Shown here: piece by piece, positions 158 to 63,300 of the stretch
Layout: every line of letters starts with the position of its first letter
Numbering within the stretch: the stretch's first letter is position 1
Assembly (NCBI GenBank): GCA_026214975.1
Contig: CM047805.1
Location: 63,317,368-63,381,367, forward strand
Direction: 5' to 3'
DNA length: 64,000 nucleotides
Source: Gentiana macrophylla
Taxonomy: Eukaryota > Streptophyta > Magnoliopsida > Gentianales > Gentianaceae
The notes under the pieces: generated by a model
Told to the model about the DNA's origin: nothing
Seen by the model: only the letters and a program-made list of their open reading frames with translations
Database searches by the model: none
Position numbers and translations under genes: made by a program

Positions 158-160
<3 letters not shown>

Positions 161-236
<76 letters not shown>
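161..236. repeat. (AT)38 microsatellite
   Basis: An uninterrupted AT dinucleotide run. It ends seven bases before the first readable codons of the coat-protein-like frame, so it sits at or inside the left junction of the viral insertion. The 160 bases to its left are AT-rich and show nothing recognisable. Confidence 0.98.
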
Positions 237-238
<2 letters not shown>

Positions 239-242
239 TACA

Positions 243-872
243 GAGGCTCCAGCTAGGAGACCACCTGTATTTTATAAAAAAAAACCTTTTTTTAGGCAGA
301 AAAGACTTTCTGAGAGGAGATTGTTAACAATTCATGACAAACTTACAATTGAAAACACAGGTGAATGTAAGCTTTTGAATAATATAAGTCAAGGTACTAG
401 TTCTGACCAGAGGCTTGGACATGATATTAATTTGTATGGAATTAATATTAAGGGGAAGGTTCATCTTCAGGTGTGTGAGCCATTAACAGGTCTTCATGTT
501 ATATGGTTTTTAATTGTTGATAAAAAACCTAAAGCTACTTCATCAGAAAATTTGAAGATGCAGGATGTTTTCGACATTTATCTTTGATGAAACCCTCTCT
601 GCTATGATTAAAGAGAGAGATGACCGATGATTCGGAGGGTTTTAAGAAGGGGTGTTTTTTGGCTATCAAAGGAAGGATCCACTTCCGGTGGTCAGAAAGA
701 GCAAGTAGTAAAAGAATATTGCAACAAAAAAATATTTGTTAAATATGGAGGTGCAACCACTGGCACTATTGATAACATTCATGAGAATGCTTTGTATTTA
801 TGTCTTTGCCCGATTCGTGAAAAGTACATTAAGCGATAATGGCATGATACGCCGAATGTATTTTCTGATTAA
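243..872 (+). pseudogene. Geminivirus-like coat protein (V1), N-terminally truncated and frameshifted
   Basis: The coat protein packages geminiviral ssDNA and enters the nucleus. The readable frame starts after the AT run with a basic stretch (RRPP, KKK, RQKR) like the family's nuclear-localisation N-terminus. It stays open to a TGA at 585-587. The middle portion (KVHLQVCEP, then WFLIVDKKP) resembles the central beta-barrel region. The frame then shifts: the next bases read on in another frame, and a third segment at 627-839 carries IHENALYLCLC, resembling the conserved C-terminal strand. A last shift gives an aromatic tail and a stop near 872. About 210 codons remain against about 250 in the family, the missing part being the N-terminus lost at the AT repeat. 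At least three frame disruptions make it non-functional. Confidence 0.8.
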
Positions 873-975
873 TAAATAAATTTTGTATATCAACCCCAAT
901 GACAAAGAAAAATCGTGAATCAAAAAAGTGTTATCAATATATATAAGCTATCAAGCATTATTTGGCCCATTGGGT
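871..975. promoter_or_regulatory. Short intergenic region between the convergent viral genes, with AATAAA signals
   Basis: Two overlapping AATAAA hexamers (871-876 and 875-880) lie right at the end of the coat-protein-like frame and would serve its transcript. The Rep-like frame ends at 976-978 on the other strand. The roughly 100-base gap between the two 3' ends matches the short intergenic region of geminiviruses lacking C2/C3. Confidence 0.6.
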
Positions 976-2103
976 TTAATAAAATGGTTCTTTTATTTCT
1001 AATTGTATTACATTTCCTTGGGCCCATTCAGAGAATCTACTATTGTCACTTTCTATTGCTATTTTATAACTACGATCACAGGTTACACAATACAATACAT
1101 GGTATACCCCACAGTATTTTTTTTTTTTCTTACAATACTTATCGTTACTGATAAAGTCTTTTGAGCACCTAACAATTCTTTTTGTAAGAAAAAAATTAAA
1201 GGGTATATCGTCTACAATATTATATAGGCGTCTACATCATAACAAGAAAAATCTATACTACCACAAAAGTAATTATGGCGGCCCAAACTTAGCCCAAAAT
1301 TGTTTTTCCTATTACGGTTGGGCCTTCAATTATCATCGACAGGGGGCGGTCCGGTTTGTTCTTGGGGTCCGATTAGTATTTAATATATCCCTAATATGAT
1401 GATAATGCTCATTAAGGTCCATTAGGGTTATTTCGTGTGCCCACTCGACATTTCCTTGGTTGCATGTTCACTACTGAAGTTTGTAGGTTTTCAACGCTAC
1501 CAAGAATAAATTACATTCAACTTGAGTCTTTTAATTCTGGGGATATTTAAAAAGCTTGTAAATCGGGCCAGTATTCGGTTGAATTTGAGGCCATTTGGAA
1601 TTTCTTTGCATATTCAGATTCCTTATTTGGGTAGCCAGGATGAGCGGTTGCTCTACTGCACCCTAGAAAGGAAGTCGATTTTGGATGTGGACTCATTTAT
1701 TATTGATGTCCATATGTCATCCTAGACTTCTTTCTTTGACGTTATATTTTCTTGGTATACCCCTTTCCTCAAATGTCCCACCTTTAGCGATGTATGCTGC
1801 TACGTCCGCATCATTTTTTGCTATTTGAGTGTTGGGGTGATATGAGTGTATCCCATTTGGGTCTTTGATGTCAAAGAACCTATTGTCCCTAGTATCCAAT
1901 TTTTTATTTAATTGTACTAGGCAATGCAAATGAGGCTCCCCATCAACATGATTTTCACTACAGACTCTAGCATAAAAAATGTCTAGGTCTTTTAGTAAAT
2001 TAAATAAAAAATCTAGGCAGAAAAGGGGGATGATGGGGCAACGTGGGTATGTTAAAAATAAAGATTTCCCCTGCAGTCTGTATTGAGCAGGTCTGCGAGG
2101 CAT
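976..2103 (-). pseudogene. Geminivirus-like replication initiator Rep (C1), full length but broken
   Basis: Rep nicks the viral origin and acts as a helicase. The first 128 codons (2103-1720) are open and hold the whole HUH endonuclease: motif I FLTYP at residues 16-20, motif II HLH at 58-60, and motif III YIAKGG with catalytic Tyr 104. The region between II and III resembles the geminiviral GRS. A TGA at 1717-1719 closes this frame. Rep-like sequence continues in the neighbouring frame with in-frame stops, reaching Walker A GPTVIGKT at 1301-1324. It shifts again for a segment around 1219-1292, and again at Walker B IVDDIPF (1198-1218), from where it is open through a motif-C-like LYCVTC to the TAA at 976-978. 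The total of about 375 codons equals the family length. The start ATG at 2101-2103 is supported by the motif I spacing. The copy cannot encode a full protein. Confidence 0.92.
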
Positions 2104-2190
2104 TGTTAGTTCTTTTAGAGATAGAATAATAGATAGAGATAGAGATTGAGTAATAGTGTTTTTGAACTCTTTTCTTACAATGGTTTTGCG

Positions 2191-2205
2191 GAGGGACAGA
2201 GGGAC
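2191..2205 (+). repeat. Tandem GAGGGAC repeat, candidate Rep-binding iteron
   Basis: GAGGGAC occurs at 2191-2197 and again at 2199-2205, next to the TATA box on the Rep side of the hairpin. Geminiviral iterons are short tandem repeats in this position, recognised by the Rep N-terminus. Only two copies are clear, so the assignment is an inference from position. Confidence 0.5.
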
Positions 2206-2212
2206 TTTTATA
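2206..2212 (-). promoter_or_regulatory. TATA box of the Rep-like gene
   Basis: TATAAAA on the - strand, about 100 bases upstream of the Rep ATG and between that ATG and the origin hairpin. This is the standard place for the complementary-sense promoter of geminiviruses. Confidence 0.7.
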
Positions 2213-2250
2213 GTGCCCTCTGATTCTGATTTTTAATCCTGGTCGTTCAT

Positions 2251-2285
2251 GTGGCAAAACCAAATAATATTACTGAGTTTGCCGC
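2251..2285 (+). other. Geminivirus-type origin stem-loop with TAATATTAC
   Basis: GTGGCAAA (2251-2258) pairs with TTTGCCGC (2278-2285) in an 8-bp stem with one G-T pair. The loop contains the exact nonanucleotide TAATATTAC at 2265-2273. Rep of geminiviruses nicks this sequence between T7 and A8 to start rolling-circle replication. It lies about 150 bases upstream of the Rep ATG, as expected, and both nonanucleotide and stem are undamaged although the genes are broken. Confidence 0.88.
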
Positions 2286-2627
2286 GTGTCGGCCAAAGAT
2301 TGGGCTTTGTTGTTATCAAATTGTGTCCCCTACACGTGGACTCGGTATGTGATTGTCGGCCAACTCTTTTCTTTTCTTTGTTGTAAAATAGTGCTTGTCG
2401 GTACATTTTCACTGCTGAGCAATAGTGAAAACACTTTTTATTTTAACCTTTCTGCTCTAGCAACTATTGTCTTTCAGACAATCATTACATCTTTGAATAA
2501 AACCCTAGGTTACTATTCATAAAGCAACTTTTTCCTGTATCAATTGATCGGAACGAAGAAAAATCTGAATTATTATCCGATTAATTGGTCTTGTGTTGAA
2601 TTTCTTGGAAAAGCATCTACTGTGAAG

Positions 2628-2687
2628 ATGGAAATTCCAATATTTGAATCCGTTTACGGTGATTACGAGGCGATTATCTTGATATAA
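2628..2687 (+). pseudogene. Possible V2-like reading frame start
   Basis: A 19-codon frame begins with ATG about 340 bases to the right of the hairpin, where virion-sense V2 would begin. Its ESVYGDYEAI segment weakly resembles the start of geminiviral V2 (pre-coat) proteins. It stops at a TAA. The match is short, so this is suggestive only. If right, it completes the circular order hairpin-V2-coat protein-Rep across the two ends of the insertion. Confidence 0.35.
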
Positions 2688-3526
2688 AGTCGAGGATCTG
2701 CTTTGTTGTATCTGTGAAGTTAAAATACCCTATTTTTATTGTGGGGCATTCAACAAGATGAAGAATCTTTCGGTAATGATAGATAGTTATCTGTTGTTAT
2801 CTGAGACCTCAATGCCCTGATGAACTCGAAGGTTGTGTTAGGGTTAGAGTTTTTGACAACAAGTTATCACGAACTGATTGCAAGCAGTGAGTTCGTTTTC
2901 CCGATATCTTGTTGTTTAAATATGACCTATTTTGGTAATCCTATGCCAGTTTAAATGACAAAGAATGTCCTTGGTCAATTACTTATGTTTTGGAAAATGT
3001 CCTTGGTCGCCTCTCTTGTTGTTTAAATATGCCCTTTTTCTTGATGAACTTAAAAAAATTAATATTATTTTATAGATTTTTGTCAGGAAGACAAAATTAT
3101 CAAAAAAATCGGGATAGAAGAAGCGTAATTTTAATCGGGTGACAAAAAGAATAAATATGAAATATGAAATATGAATAATAAATGGAGAATAGAGTAAATA
3201 TGAAGTATGATTGTAAAAGCAAAGAACATTGCGTTGCGTGAAATAATGATTTAAAAGTAATAATTGTGATTTTTGTCGCTTTATAATCGTGAAAATATTC
3301 TTTTGTCGGCTTTGACTCCATTTATTAATTTTTTTGTCGTCGTGTGGCGCATTCATCCATTATTTTATCCATAGATTTAAAATATTATTCACCATTAAAA
3401 CATCTAATCACAGGCATATTATCTGTACAATTTTTCTATGTTTATCTTCCATTCATAATTCTCCACATCAGCCAAGCATCAACAAACAACACTCCTTTAC
3501 CCCGATCACCACTACTGCTCTATCTA
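2688..3526. other. No gene seen; short direct repeats at the right flank of the viral element
   Basis: AT-rich. A phrase around TTGTTTAAATATG occurs near 2911 and again near 3017, and ATGTCCTTGGTC occurs near 2965 and 2998, so about 100 bases are partly duplicated. The exact right end of the viral insertion could lie in this stretch. The remainder shows nothing codable. Confidence 0.5.
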
Positions 3527-32076: not shown

Positions 32077-32532
32077 TCAGGTGTCAAGTCTCCACTGATA
32101 CTCATAATGACTAGAGGGTGATGTTTGGACTGGTGGTATATGAAAATTTTGATTGATTATGGTAGAAGTAAAAGGAACAACAGTACCTCTAATGGTAACA
32201 GACTGTAACGACTCTAGAGTACTAGCCTCTGCAAGTACTGAGTAAAACTCTCTTACCATTGTAACATTAATTCTTCCTCTGGGCATACGACAAAAATAGT
32301 CCCACCCATCTGTTCCCATTCTTATGAATGCCCAATTATCCACTTTTCTAAAATTTAGACCTCTTTCAACCAGCACCGGTGATTGGTTGAAATTACTCAA
32401 AAAAGGGTTTGGATTTGCTTCATTCATATAATTGTAAGGGATGGGGTGGAAAAACGGATAATGCGAATTAGGGAGTACGGAGTTTGGGGTATGCGGAGGA
32501 GAATAACTGTTAACTGACGAATGATCGGACAT
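32077..32532 (-). CDS. Extra ORF 2 of the Athila-like element: plant-transposon-protein domain, truncated
   Basis: 151 codons from ATG at 32532. Residues 1-60 are rich in Pro, Asn and Ser. Residues 89-100 are NVTMVREFYSVL, followed by VTIRGTVVPFTSTIINQNF and SPSSHYEYQW. The same blocks occur, with the same spacing, in the 267-residue protein at 56914-57717 (NVTMIREFYSVL at 81-92), so both belong to one family, often annotated as putative plant transposon protein. Function is unknown. It is cut off after about half of the domain. It lies in the same sense as pol and has its own TATATAA 76 bases upstream. Whether it is translated is unknown. Confidence 0.7.
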   Translation of the reverse strand: MSDHSSVNSYSPPHTPNSVLPNSHYPFFHPIPYNYMNEANPNPFLSNFNQSPVLVERGLNFRKVDNWAFIRMGTDGWDYFCRMPRGRINVTMVREFYSVLAEASTLESLQSVTIRGTVVPFTSTIINQNFHIPPVQTSPSSHYEYQWRLDT

Positions 32533-56913: not shown

Positions 56914-57717
56914 ATGTCTCATCCAGGGGAAAGCAGCCAGGTTCGGATATGGAAAGCTCGTCCTATCCGGGATGTTTCTCCCTTTTTCACCACTGCCTCC
57001 CCCATAGCCAAGGATTATTTCTGGGATTATTTTAAGTGGCGTGATACTATGAGGGAGAGGGGCTTAAATGAACAACGAATAGAAGATGGCTCCATGCTGC
57101 GCGTTCGGCTTTCTGGCTGGTGGGAATTTATTGCTAAGCCTCGGGCAGCGGATAATGTTACCATGATACGGGAATTTTACTCCGTGCTTTCTGAGGTAGC
57201 CTCTGGCGGGACAGTGAGTAGTATTTCTCTCCGGGGTGTCCCCGTTATCTTTACTCCGGAGAGAATTAATCAAGCTTTTAACATACCCGCTATAAATCCC
57301 TCCTCCCATTATGAGATCGCCTGGGACCTCGCAGATGAGGAAAATAGGCAGATTCGTCTAGGTATTGCAATGTGCGAGCTGTTCCCCGAGCATCCGCAGG
57401 TTTGGTCTTTGAGAGTGACTGCGTCCGACCTCTCTCGCAGCGACCGTGAGTGGAAGAAGTTTATAAATTCCCGCGCTCTTATCTTTGCCGATGCTGATGT
57501 TGTTAGTGAGAGCGAAGCGCTCCTTCTGCACGCCATTCGCGACCATCGAGTGGATATAGACTGGGGAGTGTTGATCCATCGCGAGGCACTAAGATATGCG
57601 TGCTCGGTGGGGCAAGATCGCCGAGGTACTGGTCGCCGCATGCCTTTCGCGTCGCTGATAACCAAATTATGCAGTGGCGCCAGGGTTCCCTTCCATACTC
57701 TCGACCGATATGTTTGA
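56914..57717 (+). CDS. Antisense ORF b: plant-transposon-protein domain
   Basis: 267 residues, uninterrupted, starting MSHPGESSQ. Domain blocks: DYFWDYFKWRDTMRERGL (35-52), SGWWEFIAKP (67-76), NVTMIREFYSVL (81-92), ISLRGVPVIFTPERINQAFN, PSSHYEIAWDL, DREWKKFINSRALI, DWGVLIHREAL, and PFASLITKLC near the end. The same family appears, in the same sense as pol, in the Athila-like element (32077-34489). Here it opposes pol and converges on integrase, whose frame ends at 57949. The last 26 bases recur 125 bases further on (57704 and 57829). Function is not known. No catalytic triad is evident. Confidence 0.75.
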   Translation: MSHPGESSQVRIWKARPIRDVSPFFTTASPIAKDYFWDYFKWRDTMRERGLNEQRIEDGSMLRVRLSGWWEFIAKPRAADNVTMIREFYSVLSEVASGGTVSSISLRGVPVIFTPERINQAFNIPAINPSSHYEIAWDLADEENRQIRLGIAMCELFPEHPQVWSLRVTASDLSRSDREWKKFINSRALIFADADVVSESEALLLHAIRDHRVDIDWGVLIHREALRYACSVGQDRRGTGRRMPFASLITKLCSGARVPFHTLDRYV

Positions 57718-57948: not shown

Positions 57949-59160
57949 TTACATATAGTATTTTTTTAGATTGTCTGCATGCCATGGCCTATTATACTCG
58001 CGGCCCTCCTTGTCACTTAGCATGTACGTCCCCTTTTTGATAACTCGCGAAATCCGTAGGGGGCCCTCCCAGTTTTCCGATAGCTTTCCTTTTTTCGCTT
58101 CGTGGCCAGTGGCTTGTCTTTTTTGTAGAACGTAATCCCCGACGGCGAAGTGATGATTGCGAATACGCTTATCGTGATGGCGCTTTGCCGCCTGTTTATA
58201 GTTGACTAGACGACTGTATGCCTGGATGCGCCGCTCCTCTACTAGATCAAGCTCGAGTTTACGCGCCGCCGTATTATTGACCTCGCTGTAAAAAACGACC
58301 CTAGGGCTTGGTAGGGCCATTTCCACAGGCGCCATAGCCTCAGATCCATATGTTAAAGCAAAAGGAGTTTCCCTCATTGTGATTTTTCGCGACGTCCTGA
58401 GTGCCCATAGAGCCGCTGGAAGGTGATCCGGCCAGTGGCCTGCTTTCTCACCCAGGCTCTTCTTTAACACACTTAGGACCTGTTTGTTGGCATTTTCGGC
58501 TTGCCCATTTCCTTGCGGGTAGCACACGGATGATTGCCAATGTTTAACATTGTTCTCTTCACAAAATCGTCGAATTCGTCTACGAATTGAGGTCCGTGAT
58601 CGGAAATCATCACTCTCGGAACACCAAATCTTGTCCATATTTGATCGAGCAAAAGTATGTTATGTCCCTGGTATTGGTTTTACCAAGGCCTTAGCCTCGA
58701 CCCATTTAGTAAAATAATCCACCGCGACGACCACGTATTCAAGAACTGAGCGACCCTTCTTCAAAGGTCCGATGAGGTCGATCGCCCACATGTCGAAAGG
58801 CCAGGCAGCTACCACTATGCTTTGTTCGACTGAGGGTAGCCTGGGGATATTTGCGAACCTCTGGCAAGTATCACATGCTTGGGTATGAGATTTGGCGTCT
58901 TCTGCTAATTTCGGCCAATAATATCCGGCTAGAAGTACCTTCTGTGCTAGTGTTCGATTGGAGGGATGGCCGCCGCACATTCCCTCATGTAGTTCTGTTA
59001 GAATTCCCGTTACCTCCTCAGGTCGTACGCACCGCAGAAGGGGTTTCGAGAATGAATGACGGTAAAGCACATCGTCCATAATCATATATCTTGCGGCCCT
59101 TTTTACTAAGGCCTTAGCTTTGCAAGGATCGCTGGGAAGCTCCCCTAACTCAATATAAGA
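57949..59160 (-). pseudogene. Tat-type integrase
   Basis: H2C2-like zinc segment (HEGMCGGHPSNRTL, then CDTCQRFANIPRLPS) at about 58.9 kb, first catalytic Asp in MWAIDLIGP near 58778, VVAVDYFTKWVEAKAL, second Asp in VMISDHGPQF near 58600, and the Glu-containing PQGNGQAENANKQVL. Then comes a long C-terminal domain (GDYVLQKRQATGHEAKKGKL, NWEGPLRISRVIKKGTYML) ending at 57949. A frame shift between about 58660 and 58570 separates the core from the C-terminal part, otherwise it is intact. Confidence 0.85.
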
Positions 59161-59620
59161 CTTCATGATGTCGACCCAACAAGTGTTACTGGGGTTGGAA
59201 TTCCATGATCTCGACTTGGGAGATGGCGGGCTCCGATAGGTGTTGAACCATGAGGCTGGATCGCACGACGCGTCTTCGCTGGTTAATTTGGATAAGTAGT
59301 CTGCCCTATGATTGTCCTCTCGAGGGATGTTTTTGAATTGACAATATGCGAAGCTGCTTTCGAGTCTTTTGACGAGGTTAATATACCTCTGTAAAATTTC
59401 GCAATGAATGCCAAAGGACCCATTGATTTGATTCACCACCAACTGTGAGTCGCAAAATACTTGTATATTTTCGACTTTCATGGCTTTGGCGAGTTTCAAC
59501 CCAGCAATGACGGCCTCGTATTCTGCCTGGTTATTAGAGGCGGTGAAGTCGAATCTCAGAGCCTGCTCAATTTCTTCTGAGGTGCCCGGCTCTAACAGAT
59601 TATTCCCGCCGCACGCACTT
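59160..59620 (-). pseudogene. Second, archaeal-like RNase H of the Tat element
   Basis: Reads AKAMKVENIQVFCDSQLVVN, INGSFGIHCEILQRYINLV, KNIPREDNHRADYLSKL at 59499-59260, with the acidic residues in CDSQLV and in the ADYLSKL segment. The upstream part (AEYEAVIAG-like, complement of about 59500-59530) is also readable. This domain marks the Tat lineage. It is continuous with integrase downstream. Confidence 0.8.
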
Positions 59621-59752
59621 TGTGATTAGCGGCACCATCGACGTAGAGTCGCTTAGCGGTGACTTGGCCACGATAGGCTCGTCCTCCGTGGTGACCTTAT
59701 CTGGTCGTATTCGGAGCGGACACCGCTCTTTCACTTCTTCGTTGAAGCTTGT

Positions 59753-60432
59753 TTACGCTATGAAATGCGGGAGAGCCTGGGCCTTTATAGCCTTCCGAGG
59801 CTCATATCGGATATCGAACTCAGTAAGCTCGATGGCCCATCGGAGCAGTCGACCGGATAGGTCTGGTTTGTGAAGAACCTGTCTTAGCGATGCATTTGAT
59901 AAGACTACGATGGTGTGCGATGAAAAGTAAGCCCTTAATTTGCGGGCAGCTATAACAACACAATAAGCCAACTTTTCTATATTAAAATAACGACTTTCAA
60001 CGGGGCTTAGAGCTTTGGAAACATAAAAAACTGGCTTCTGCGAGCCTTCCTCCTCTTTTACAAGTGCTGCGGCTACGGCCCTATCCGAAATTTGCCAAAT
60101 ACAAAAACAAAGTATCCCGAGCCTCAAAATTTTAGTTAACAACGGCGGTCTTGACAAGTATTCTTTGAGGTCTTTAAATGCGGGAGCATTCCATTTGCCC
60201 AAGAGAAGGTACCACTACTTTTCGAGAATTTTGAAGAAAAGCGGACTTCTTCTGCAGATTTCGAGACAAACTCGCCCAGAGTCGTGATCCTGCCGTTAAG
60301 CGATTGTACTTCTTTATCTTTGGTGGGCTCGCTCATGTTGACCAGGGCCTCGATTTTCTCGGGATTTGCCTCGATCCCCCTTTGACTTACCATAAAGCCC
60401 GAGAAATTTTCTGCTGGACCCCGAAAGTACAT
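59753..60432 (-). pseudogene. RT thumb and first RNase H of the Tat element
   Basis: FMVSQRGIEANPEKIEALVN near 60390 is the RT-RNase H connection. Then a separate frame (60202-59753) has FKDLKEYLSRPPLL, ISDRAVAAALVKEEEG, VFYVSKALSPVESRYFNIEK, and ends LLRWAIELTEFDIRYEPRKA. The two frames overlap because of a small indel near 60200, and another shift separates them from RT. Confidence 0.78.
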
Positions 60433-60463
60433 TTCGTAGGGTTTAGTTTCATTGAGTGGCCCC

Positions 60464-61837
60464 CTACATTGGCGAAGGTTTTTGAAGGTCCACCAGGTGA
60501 CCCTGGCGACTTGACTTTACGACCATATCATCAATATAGGCTTCCATGTTCCTGCCTATTTGTGTGTTGAAGACTCGGTTTACCATTCTCTGATATGTCG
60601 AACCTGCGTTCTTTAGGCCGAAAGGCATCATCTCATAGTAATAGAGTCCACCTGCGGCTCTGAAGGCCGTCATTTCCTTGTCTTCATCTGCCATTTTGAC
60701 TTGGTGATAACCGGAATATGCGTCCAGAAAACTCAGTGTCTCGAATCCTGCGATCCCGTCGACCATTTTGTCAATCCGGGGCAGCGCATAAGGGTCTTTG
60801 GGGCAAGCTTTGTTCAAGTCTGTGAAGTCGACACACATCCGCCACTTGCCGTTGTGTTTCTTCACCATTACTACGTTTGCCAGCCATGTGGGATATTGGA
60901 GCTCCTTGATGATGCCTGCTGCTAGAAGTTTCTTGATTTCGCCTTTTATTGCGATCTCTTTTTCCAGAGAGAACTGGCGTGCTCTTTGCTGTATTGGTCT
61001 GAAGTTGGGGTCGGCATTCAGATAGTGCAAAGCGACCTCTGACCCAACGCCCCTCATGTCTGTTACTTCCCATGCAAAGGCGCTCAAGTTGTCTTTTAGA
61101 AGCCCGATCAATTCTTCCCTCTCTTCCTCGGTGGTCCTCGATCCTATTTTTATCTTTTGATCGGGATATTTGTCGTTTATTATGACCTCGATCAACTCGT
61201 CCTCGGCAGTGAAGTCGGGCTCGTCTCGAACTTGCAATGTTTCCACTTCTACTGCCTTTTCCGGGATTTCTTCCATCATAGCGATCTGATCCGTGGCCGT
61301 GTTAAAACCATCCAGTCGGGGTCGCTTAGAATCGACTCTGTTTTTGGTCATGTAGTCGAGGAAAGCTCCAGGTCGGCTGATGGCGACCCCAACTTCTTCC
61401 CCTACGTGAAATTTGACCCGTTGGTGGGGAACGGACGCCACCATTTGAAATTTTTTCATGGCCGGGATCCCCAAGATAATGTTGTAGTATGAGGGAAGAT
61501 CAATAACTAAAAACGTAATTATCTCAGTTCTGCATGGCTCATAGTCGCCCAAAGTGACGTTGAGGTCGACCGTTCCCTTGACCCGCACGGTGTCGTTGGT
61601 AAAGCCCTCGAGCACCCCGAGGTAAGGTTTCAACTTAGCTTCTCCAAATCCGATCTGTTTTAAACAGTCGAAATAGATGACGTCGCGACCAGCCCCTGTG
61701 TCGATCATCGCTCTGCTGACTCCATGTTTGTCGTTTATTCCGATTTTGAGAACAAGGGGTACCTCCATGGGGCCCTCGCTTGTGGCCAATTCGCTTTTAG
61801 TGAACATGATTCCCTTCTCGTTTTCCCCCAATACCAC
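60464..61837 (-). CDS. Protease and reverse transcriptase of the Tat element
   Basis: 457 codons open. The protease core is RAMIDTGAGRDVIYF with catalytic Asp 46 (near 61702). RT: PIQQRARQFS, VVMVKKHNGKWRMCVDFTDL, FLDAYSGYHQV, MPFGLKNAGSTYQRMVN, and the catalytic YIDDMVVKS at residues 434-442. The frame is lost just after the YIDD block, near 60470, by a small indel, and the thumb continues in another frame. It should begin upstream as part of a gag-pol polyprotein, so this start is not the true one. Confidence 0.85.
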   Translation of the reverse strand: MVLGENEKGIMFTKSELATSEGPMEVPLVLKIGINDKHGVSRAMIDTGAGRDVIYFDCLKQIGFGEAKLKPYLGVLEGFTNDTVRVKGTVDLNVTLGDYEPCRTEIITFLVIDLPSYYNIILGIPAMKKFQMVASVPHQRVKFHVGEEVGVAISRPGAFLDYMTKNRVDSKRPRLDGFNTATDQIAMMEEIPEKAVEVETLQVRDEPDFTAEDELIEVIINDKYPDQKIKIGSRTTEEEREELIGLLKDNLSAFAWEVTDMRGVGSEVALHYLNADPNFRPIQQRARQFSLEKEIAIKGEIKKLLAAGIIKELQYPTWLANVVMVKKHNGKWRMCVDFTDLNKACPKDPYALPRIDKMVDGIAGFETLSFLDAYSGYHQVKMADEDKEMTAFRAAGGLYYYEMMPFGLKNAGSTYQRMVNRVFNTQIGRNMEAYIDDMVVKSSRQGHLVDLQKPSPM

Positions 61838-61985
61838 CTGCTTTTCAAAGCCGCGTGCATTGATCTGGTGTATCTGAGATTTCAGCCGACTGTTGCTGGG
61901 GATATCCCCATGGATAACTTGGACCTCTTTCTGATAGACGCGGGGCGACCTTGACCGGTGTGCGTGTATTCCATCTCGCTTATAC

Positions 61986-63300
61986 TTAGTCGGCTGGCCC
62001 CTCGCGGATTAACCTTTCTATTTCTCGCCTTAACGTGAAGCATTCATCTGTGATGTGACCATGATCCTTGTGATAGTCACAGTACTTGGACTTGTCGCGG
62101 CTGTCGGGATCGCCCCTCATAGGTTTGGGCTTGTCAAAGTGCTCGCGAATTTCGAACAATATTTGAGACGCTTTGGTGTTGAGCGGGGTAAAATTGTCCT
62201 CGCTGAATTTATAAGGCTTTTTTACCTCGCGCTCGTGATTAGCCTCTCGCCCTTTTTCCTTCTTTTTTTCCTCGGTCGCCTCTTTTTGTGGAGGCTGCTC
62301 GCTTTGTCTTTGCCCTGCCCCAGACGGCGCTTCACTGACTCCCATCATTCGAGCCCTTTCCAACATTTCTCTGAGACCCGCTTTAGGGGGTCGTAGGTTG
62401 AATTCGGTTTTCATTGGTCCCTTGGCGATCCCTGTGAGGAAACATGTGACAACTGCATCATCCGGAATGTTCCTTGTCTGATCGTATATTCTGATGAAAC
62501 GTTCATAATATTCTTTTCCGGACTCATGTCCTCCCATGCGAATTTCATATAGGTCCTCTATAGTTTTCTTTGGTCTACTCGCCGATTCAAACTCTCTGAC
62601 GAATTTCTCGGAGAGATCCTCCCAACCTTTCTTGAGCCGCGGGGAGTCCACGTATCAAGATGCGGCCCTATCCTCTGCATGCTTCCGACTAAGGCGATGC
62701 ACTGTGCAGATTTATTTTGTGTCGCCAGGGTGATGCGACCTTGAAAGCGTGAGCGGTCGTTTGGGCAAGAATTTCCGTTGTAGTAATTATATTTGGGATA
62801 GCTAACTTTTCGCGACCGGTAGGCAATGTTTCAGTAATTCTCTTGGCCAAAGACGTCGATTCCCGAGATTGGGGCGGTTCTCTCGGCCGGCCTTGACTTT
62901 TTCAAATCGGGCGAGCTTATTTTTCATTATCTCCATCATTGCTCGCCCAGATGGTCGAAATCGGGTCGTAATAACGCCTGTGTATTAGCCCTCTCTGGGC
63001 TGCGTTCTGACTCCCCGCCGTCCTCCGACTCCTCCCGGCGAGCTCTCTTTTCACGGATAATTAGGCGGGCGTCCGGTGCGTCCTTGTCTCGTCGGGGGAG
63101 TAATCCTCCCTCAGGAAGGCTGAGACGACTTGGGGCCGAGGCCTTGTCCTTCTCACCCAACCTTTTGAAAGCCGAGCCTTTTTCATGTGATCTTTCCTCG
63201 GGTGATCACGATCAGGGAGAACCGAAGTCTGCTAACGCGTTTTCCCGGGTCGCTGCGGCTGAGTGAGGCGTACACTTTCTTCTATCTCGACCCGTGAGTC
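61986..63300 (-). pseudogene. gag of the Tat element
   Basis: The N-terminal charged region (RARREESEDGGESERSPER, 63160-62936) lies in a different frame from the capsid part (62651-61986). The latter holds KKGWEDLSEKFVREFESA, KTIEDLYEIRMGGHESGKEY, ERFIRIYDQTRNIPDDAVV, FLTGIAKGPMKTEFNLRPPK, and a closing CDYHKDHGHITDECFTLRRE, the C-x2-H-type knuckle of Tat gags. Breaks between 62936 and 62651 disrupt the gene. Confidence 0.78.

What the first reader, a model, noticed from the sequence alone, without database searches (positions are those of the whole stretch)
243..2687. Near-complete, permuted endogenous geminivirus genome
Coat-protein-like, short intergenic, Rep-like and long intergenic regions with origin hairpin all occur in correct order and orientation, within the length of one geminiviral circle. 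Most endogenous geminiviral sequences known are Rep and origin fragments, so a copy with the coat protein on the other side is informative for which lineage invaded and when. The absence of space for C2/C3 genes, together with a one-piece Rep, points away from a plain begomovirus.
Basis: partly seen in the sequence, partly recalled or inferred. Interest (0 to 1): 0.93.

Follow-up and report, generated by a model that had tools for sequence, protein, structure and literature searches.

The report
Decayed fragment of integrated plant virus

Summary
Window 236-2999 is geminivirus-derived: coat protein (CP), short intergenic region, Rep on the minus strand, long intergenic region with a TAATATTAC hairpin, in that order. 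Two inferences fail. (1) It is not near-complete. In 18 of 27 other loci read from the same 1.79-Gb plant genome, sequence matching the window's right end runs into a ~995-nt segment absent here, which leads back to CP and encodes the rest of a begomovirus BC1-like movement protein (MP). The source circle was ~3.76 kb; this copy holds ~74%. (2) Rep is not one-piece. In the 5 of 36 copies whose first Rep frame stays open to the end, it stops after 268-269 codons; in 3 of these Walker A lies beyond it in another frame: a RepA/spliced-Rep layout. These features together match Citlodavirus; no tree could be made. The genome gives at least 150 scored Rep and 150 scored CP matches, so this is an ordinary pseudogenised copy: a new member of a known kind. 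Beside the family lies a high-copy, apparently non-coding 1.26-kb satellite-like DNA sharing the virus origin, more novel than the locus itself.

The parts
158..235 (.). AT microsatellite at the left plant/virus junction
   Evidence: the bases shared with viral copies begin at about 235.
236..839 (+). Coat protein pseudogene lacking its N-terminal part; frame disturbed between about 585 and 623
   Evidence: PF00844; genome hit G000:C1:63317619-63318182, 71.5 bits; stop positions.
840..975 (.). Short intergenic region; AATAAA at 871 and 875 (+), and for the minus-strand gene at 992, just inside the Rep end. 894-943 also occurs in the satellite-like DNA.
976..2103 (-). RepA/Rep (C1:C2) pseudogene; stop of the C1 frame at 1333-1335; Walker A piece at about 1301-1324; several frame changes and stops
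   Evidence: Pieces downstream of the HUH domain gave no Pfam hit and are recognised by homology to sister copies.
1717..2103 (-). Open 128-codon ORF with the HUH endonuclease domain (FLTYP, HLH, GRS and YIAK motifs)
   Evidence: PF00799 E=3.7e-27; PDB Rep domains 7vg8 E=6.1e-23, 1l2m, 6q1m; motif positions.
2104..2626 (.). Long intergenic region: Rep-side TATA (2207-2212), G-box (2333), candidate iterons GAGGGAC at 2191-2197 and 2199-2205, hairpin 2248-2288 with TAATATTAC at 2265-2273
   Evidence: 'Iteron' is inference; the GGGAC motif is absent in 9 of 33 viral copies examined.
2627..2999 (+). First ~373 nt of a movement-protein gene (about 858 nt where open at both ends), matched in two different frames here
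   Evidence: Frames and tblastn; the continuation in sister copy L018 matches PF00845 Gemini_BL1 positions 115-205, E=1.1e-12.
2996..3039 (.). Right junction: patches repeating 2964-2976 and 2907-2932, consistent with templated filler
   Evidence: Repeat families D3 and D11; junction bases. Mechanism is inference.

Best explanation
A citlodavirus-like geminivirus with a ~3.76-kb circle (ori - MP - CP - short intergenic region - RepA/spliced Rep) infected an ancestor of this plant. A linear, circularly permuted ~2.76-kb piece, broken within MP and within the CP N-terminus, was joined into a chromosome at a double-strand break, with filler at the right junction (inferred). It has since decayed and has no evident function. 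In the live virus, Rep would bind repeats beside its own promoter, nick TAATATT/AC and drive rolling-circle replication; RepA and Rep would be made by alternative splicing (inferred from homologues). Many related copies sit elsewhere in the genome, and most of their differences arose while Rep was under purifying selection, so they most likely entered by repeated integrations of evolving viruses (inferred). Shown: gene content, order, borders, missing segment, frame layout, decay, abundance of copies, codon-position bias. Inferred: splicing, integration route, lineage name, age.
For: Pfam hits for Rep and CP and, in the adjoining segment of a sister copy, MP. PDB matches to geminivirus Rep domains and a weak one to a capsid protein (6ek5, E=0.017). 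Hairpin origin. Right end at 2999 followed by the segment within about 5 nt in 18 of 27 loci; segment followed by the 236 end within about 5 nt in 10 of 27. C1 open for 268-269 codons to one stop in 5 of 36 copies; Walker A in frame +1 in 3 of those 5 and not found intact in 2. [quoted passage not shown] Plant DNA in the window: Transposase_32 E=1.3e-19 and retrotransposon domains. Differences from 33 other copies by codon position 472/372/1089; dN/dS 0.07-0.41 in the 29 computable pairs.
Against: No geminivirus reference proteins could be searched, so the citlodavirus label rests on architecture. V2/V3 were not identified. MP-before-CP order was not checked against a citlodavirus map. The HUH domain scores better against TYLCV-type (84.6 bits) than WDV-type Rep (62.9) in PDB (virus names of the entries recalled), whereas PMC5923463 groups citlodavirus Reps with becurtoviruses. 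Over all 36 copies a Walker A motif was found in 14: frame +1 in 9, +2 in 3, 0 in 2; L018, with C1 open for 258 codons, has it in frame 0, so the frame layout is not uniform, presumably because of indels. One of two copies reaching 2999 in L024, and L037, are not followed by the segment. The 27 loci are top-scoring Rep matches, not a random sample.
Confidence: 0.82

Rival explanations
1. A begomovirus-type insertion like the Clade 1/2 endogenous geminiviruses, with C2/C3 lost by deletion.
For: Best PDB matches of the HUH domain are the TYLCV-type Reps. Yam, tobacco and macadamia copies are begomovirus-like (PMC5014472 passages; PMC8626973 part 1).
Against: Other copies match continuously across 840-975 (L015, L016), so the close CP/Rep ends are not a deletion private to this copy. 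C1 layout and MP on the CP strand do not fit; begomovirus BC1 lies on a separate DNA-B (PMC8744271, read in full as held).
Confidence: 0.06
2. The copies spread inside the genome as a Rep-driven, Helitron-like mobile element rather than by repeated infection; the window copy is one dead insertion.
For: Many copies, purifying selection across the family, nonanucleotide intact in 31 of 33 viral origins, tandem and inverted arrays, a satellite with the same origin. A Helitron parallel was proposed for yam and tobacco copies (PMC5014472, passages).
Against: Copies start and stop at different circle positions, with no fixed ends. Repeated infection by evolving viruses gives the same codon-position signal. 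Copies were ranked by Rep score, which favours preserved ones.
Confidence: 0.1
3. A phytoplasma plasmid Rep or other non-geminiviral CRESS element, or an assembly chimera with an episomal virus.
For: 15 plasmid records, named as phytoplasmas, match the Rep domain at 31-36% identity, best E=3e-12.
Against: Geminivirus matches are stronger (Pfam 3.7e-27, PDB 6e-23; different tools, so only roughly comparable); CP and MP genes are present; the genes are broken; related copies lie on many chromosomes.
Confidence: 0.02

Closest known systems
Clade 3 endogenous geminiviruses of Ericales (Camellia, Vaccinium, Monotropa), Sharma et al. 2020, PMC7758297
   Same: High copy number, clustered copies, CP and movement-protein domains beside repA/repB homologues, TAATATTAC; sister to CCDaV, MMDaV and CaCDaV in their tree.
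   Different: Their assembled Camellia unit was 4.6 kb and its CP clustered with grabloviruses; here the circle is about 3.76 kb. Sequences could not be compared here.
Genus Citlodavirus (CCDaV, CaCDaV, PCMoV, apiscitlodal virus)
   Same: Large monopartite circle, BC1-like MP on the CP strand, RepA plus Rep from a split C1:C2, TAATATTAC.
   Different: Integrated and decayed; MP about 858 nt against 888-921; V2/V3 not identified; no tree or genome-wide identity.
GRD elements of Nicotiana; EGV1/EGV2 of yam (PMC5014472)
   Same: Chromosomal, tandemly repeated, Rep plus origin.
   Different: Begomovirus-like, and no CP homologue was detected in the yam copies; this family has CP, MP and a C1:C2 layout.
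Virus/host hybrid minicircles of BCTIV (PMC6293997) and geminivirus satellites, for the 1.26-kb units
   Same: Similar size (1,241-1,572 nt) with a helper-virus stem-loop origin plus unrelated DNA.
   Different: Here chromosomal head-to-tail arrays; shared part only about 130 nt plus 50 nt; no ORF over 71 aa in the unit examined; host origin of the private part untested.

Membership tests
Endogenous geminiviral element | Geminivirus Rep and CP homology | tested here: met
   PF00799 3.7e-27; PF00844 4.3e-13 and 7e-5
Endogenous geminiviral element | Joined to plant chromosomal DNA | tested here: met
   In a 196-Mb assembled sequence with plant transposons; the flanks of this copy are not shared with the 27 loci apart from one 71% stretch in L021. 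In the assembly only; no reads were available.
Endogenous geminiviral element | Decayed genes | tested here: met
   Stops and frame changes in CP and Rep and two frames in MP
Citlodavirus (lineage of origin) | Circle larger than other monopartite geminiviruses | tested here: met
   2,764 + ~995 nt, lengths added only; 3,918 nt in apiscitlodal virus (PMC11053556)
Citlodavirus (lineage of origin) | BC1-like MP of about 0.9 kb on the virion strand | tested here: met
   PF00845 E=1.1e-12 in sister copy L018; about 858 nt in the 2 of 20 junctions open at both ends, L024 and L031. The window copy keeps only the first ~373 nt.
Citlodavirus (lineage of origin) | RepA plus Rep by splicing of C1:C2 | tested here: inconclusive
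   C1 length and frame of Walker A fit; Walker lysine at codon-equivalent ~267 against K225 in TYLCV Rep (PMC12724345, passages); no RNA examined
Citlodavirus (lineage of origin) | V2 and V3 genes | tested here: inconclusive
   Short open frames in the segment, no convincing Pfam family
Citlodavirus (lineage of origin) | Rep/CP phylogeny and genome-wide identity | not testable with these tools
   Protein database off; no geminivirus found in viral contigs
Begomovirus | C2 (TrAP) and C3 (REn) genes at the Rep end | tested here: not met
   CP stop 837-839 and Rep end 976 about 136 nt apart; no AL2/AL3 family among the 15 pieces scanned

The most novel reading that the evidence does not exclude
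This genome carries a two-part endogenous replicon system: citlodavirus-like copies that supply Rep, and a high-copy, non-coding 1.26-kb satellite with the same hairpin and candidate Rep-binding repeats but mostly without the Rep-promoter TATA. Both would have been amplified into many loci by Rep-driven rolling-circle replication of integrated or excised copies, in a Helitron-like life cycle, rather than only by repeated infection.
Probability: 0.18. Interest if true: 0.75.

Novelty: new member of a known kind. Interest (0 to 1): 0.4.

Why it matters
The locus adds one decayed copy to a known kind of element. Its family is more useful: it records, in many copies, a large geminivirus lineage of the type proposed as an intermediate between monopartite and bipartite viruses (PMC5923463, abstract passage), so gene layout and age can be studied without a living virus. 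The satellite-like arrays, if confirmed, would be a chromosomal fossil record of geminivirus satellites. No report of endogenous geminivirus satellites was seen in the listings of searches, and the word 'satellite' does not occur in the main texts of the yam and survey papers; other papers in those listings were not read for it.

Tried and rejected
Rejected: near-complete genome; one-piece Rep; begomovirus; phytoplasma plasmid Rep; phage origin (no match). Fixed transposon-like ends at 236 and 2999 were considered and dropped: comparisons end there because this copy's own junctions lie there, and sister copies run on through both points. Selection on the 128-aa Rep domain after insertion is not supported: window-private changes are 7 of 384 against 29 of 724 in the rest of Rep (p=0.052), evenly spread over codon positions (1, 3, 3). 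Of five other copies, two show a stronger deficit in that domain (L028 p=0.0013, L039 p=0.006) and three do not.

Led nowhere: viral-contig scans gave no geminivirus; the five loci matched a DNA pattern only and were not studied. Rfam: no family. Pfam on ten short pieces gave no geminivirus hit. PDB gave nothing for the second CP piece or credible for the Rep C-terminal piece. The host species was not identified.

Not answered: genome-wide counts for MP (PF00845) and for the right plant flank, as the genome search was busy; duplication of the insertion site is therefore untested genome-wide. A genome search with the Rep DNA did not complete.

Full report
What is there. The minus-strand ORF 1717-2103 (128 codons) is a geminivirus Rep endonuclease domain: Gemini_AL1, E=3.7e-27; best PDB match 7vg8, E=6.1e-23. 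FLTYP is at residue 16, HLH at 58, the GRS at 71 and YIAK at 104 (motif names as in PMC11053556 and PMC10548238, passages). The plus-strand pieces 243-587 and 627-839 are geminivirus coat protein, E=4.3e-13 and 7e-5. TAATATTAC occurs four times in the 64 kb counting both strands and once inside the element, at 2265-2273, in a hairpin of -12 kcal/mol against a shuffle mean of -5.06 (z=-3.9, 0 of 200 as stable). AATAAA signals lie at the ends of both genes, and a TATA box and a G-box flank the hairpin. Two GAGGGAC repeats sit beside the TATA (sequence printed); calling them iterons is inference.

The genome. The window is G000:C1:63317368-63381367 of a 1.79-Gb assembly. The DNA is plant: Transposase_32 (E=1.3e-19) and retrotransposon gag, reverse transcriptase, RNase H-like and integrase zinc-binding domains lie in the same window. 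The Rep family gives 150 scored matches out of 331 first-look candidates and the CP family 150 out of 413; the tool calls such counts lower bounds, and both searches ring in 0 of 14 control genomes. The window's own Rep and CP are in the lists at 94.6 and 71.5 bits.

Borders and missing part. The window was compared by blastn with 27 other loci (L015-L021, L022-L041), taken from the top of the Rep list; 26 of 27 gave matches, and L022 gave none at these settings (the same place, as L008, matched at 67% with shorter words). Homology begins at 228/236 and ends at 2999. In 18 of 27 loci the part matching the right end is followed, within about 5 nt, by a segment not in the window; two more (L015, L017) show its first 31-34 nt. 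The rest do not reach 2999, except L037, and one of two copies in L024, which are not followed by it. In 10 of 27 the far end of the segment leads within about 5 nt to the part matching 236. The segment measures 995 and 997 nt in L018 and L019, at 84% identity. It has no match in the window or in the ~4 kb upstream. So the source circle was about 3.76 kb and this copy holds about 2.76 kb. The segment's first open frame matches the BL1 movement protein: PF00845, E=1.1e-12, profile 115-205. At 20 junctions examined, an ATG lies 372-374 nt before the junction in 6, and frames run 479-488 nt beyond it in 8; L024 and L031 have both, giving about 858 nt. The right junction, 2996-3039, repeats two nearby viral patches (2964-2976 exactly, 2907-2932 at 92%), which looks like templated filler from end joining (inference).

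Rep layout. In 36 other Rep copies the frame from the ATG stays open for 268-269 codons, to a stop mapping to window ~1328, in 5; in the other 31 it ends earlier. A Walker A motif was found in 14 of 36: frame +1 in 9, +2 in 3, 0 in 2. Among the five with open C1 it is in frame +1 in 3 and not found intact in 2; L018, open for 258 codons, has it in frame 0. In the window the Walker lysine is at codon-equivalent ~267; in TYLCV Rep it is K225 (PMC12724345, passages). RepA of 260-300 aa with Rep made by splicing is described for mastre-, capula-, becurto- and grabloviruses (PMC10548238, passages), and a citlodavirus has RepA of 864 nt and a 99-nt intron (PMC11053556, passages and section 11). One-piece Rep is therefore not supported, and a split Rep explains the missing C2/C3.

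Lineage. A large circle, a BC1-like MP on the CP strand and RepA/Rep are features given for citlodaviruses (PMC5923463, passages; PMC11053556). Clade 3 endogenous copies in Ericales are their sister group, and the survey assembled one 4.6-kb Camellia unit with CP, MP, repA and repB homologues (PMC7758297, parts 2-4 of 7 and passages). Against this, the HUH domain alone scores better against TYLCV-type than WDV-type domains in PDB (84.6 and 62.9 bits; virus names recalled). No tree could be made.

Selection and age. Over 348 nt of the HUH domain the window differs from 33 other ungapped copies (2 gapped ones dropped) by 472, 372 and 1,089 changes at codon positions 1, 2 and 3. dN/dS is 0.07-0.41 in the 29 pairs where it could be computed, and 27 of the 33 have no stop there. 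The family therefore diversified mostly while Rep was functional, though ranking by Rep score favours preserved copies. Changes private to the window copy against five near relatives are 44 of 1,190 columns, 3.7%; three-way branch estimates give 5.6-6.9%. With rates of 1e-9 (quoted in PMC5014472) to 7e-9 (recalled) this is roughly 5 to 69 million years. It is an upper bound at each rate, because part of the change may predate integration. Within the HUH domain private changes are even over codon positions, so nothing suggests that this copy was kept for a function.

Satellite-like DNA. Seven of the 27 loci carry all or part of a 1,258-nt unit that shares only two stretches with the virus: about 130 nt around the hairpin (window 2152-2283) and about 50 nt of the short intergenic region (894-943). 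Its longest ATG-started frame is 71 aa. A 651-nt piece of its private part gives 52 matches, with 40 of 399 first-look candidates scored. Six loci opened (L052-L057, from four arrays) all show head-to-tail units with intact TAATATTAC. In one search, 8 of 8 origins not followed by Rep kept TAATATTAC; two of these (L030, L031) are probably viral fragments, and of the other six, 5 lack the TATA match and all keep 1-2 GGGAC motifs. Among 33 viral origins, 31 keep TAATATTAC, 33 the TATA match, and 24 at least one GGGAC, while 9 divergent ones have none. This resembles trans-replicated satellites or the virus/host minicircles of 1,241-1,572 nt described for BCTIV (PMC6293997, passages). The host origin of the private part is untested.

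Verdict. A real, decayed, partial endogenous geminivirus of citlodavirus-like architecture, one of many in this plant genome: a new member of a known kind. On the second check the odds of the Helitron-like rival were set at 0.10, so that the alternatives add up; nothing else changed in the odds.

Noticed in passing
L020:1076-2333; also L015, L025, L028, L031, L034, L041, L052-L057: High-copy 1,258-nt head-to-tail unit sharing the virus hairpin region and a 50-nt piece of the short intergenic region, with no ORF over 71 aa: an endogenous satellite-like DNA.
   Followed up: partly
L029:1931-6428: Head-to-tail repeats, each matching window 1540-2796 (Rep 5' part plus origin, about 1.26 kb), with the outermost ones shorter or longer: a subgenomic array of nearly the same length as the satellite-like unit.
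   Followed up: no
G000:C5:91365078-91403464 and C5:91669529-91679237: Clusters of partial coat-protein matches, many spaced about 0.85 kb or multiples of it, with no Rep match listed there among the 150 scored: possibly a tandem repeat built on a coat-protein fragment.
   Followed up: no
window 56914-57717 (+) and 32077-32532 (-): Two Transposase_32 'putative plant transposon' matches, the second partial and below the curated cut-off.
   Followed up: no
window 58660-62651 (-): Degraded LTR-type retrotransposon with gag, reverse transcriptase, RNase H-like and integrase zinc-binding domains.
   Followed up: no
L014:487-738 (about 3.2-3.5 kb upstream of the window start): Short tandem repeat with a 63-bp offset upstream of the element.
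   Followed up: no
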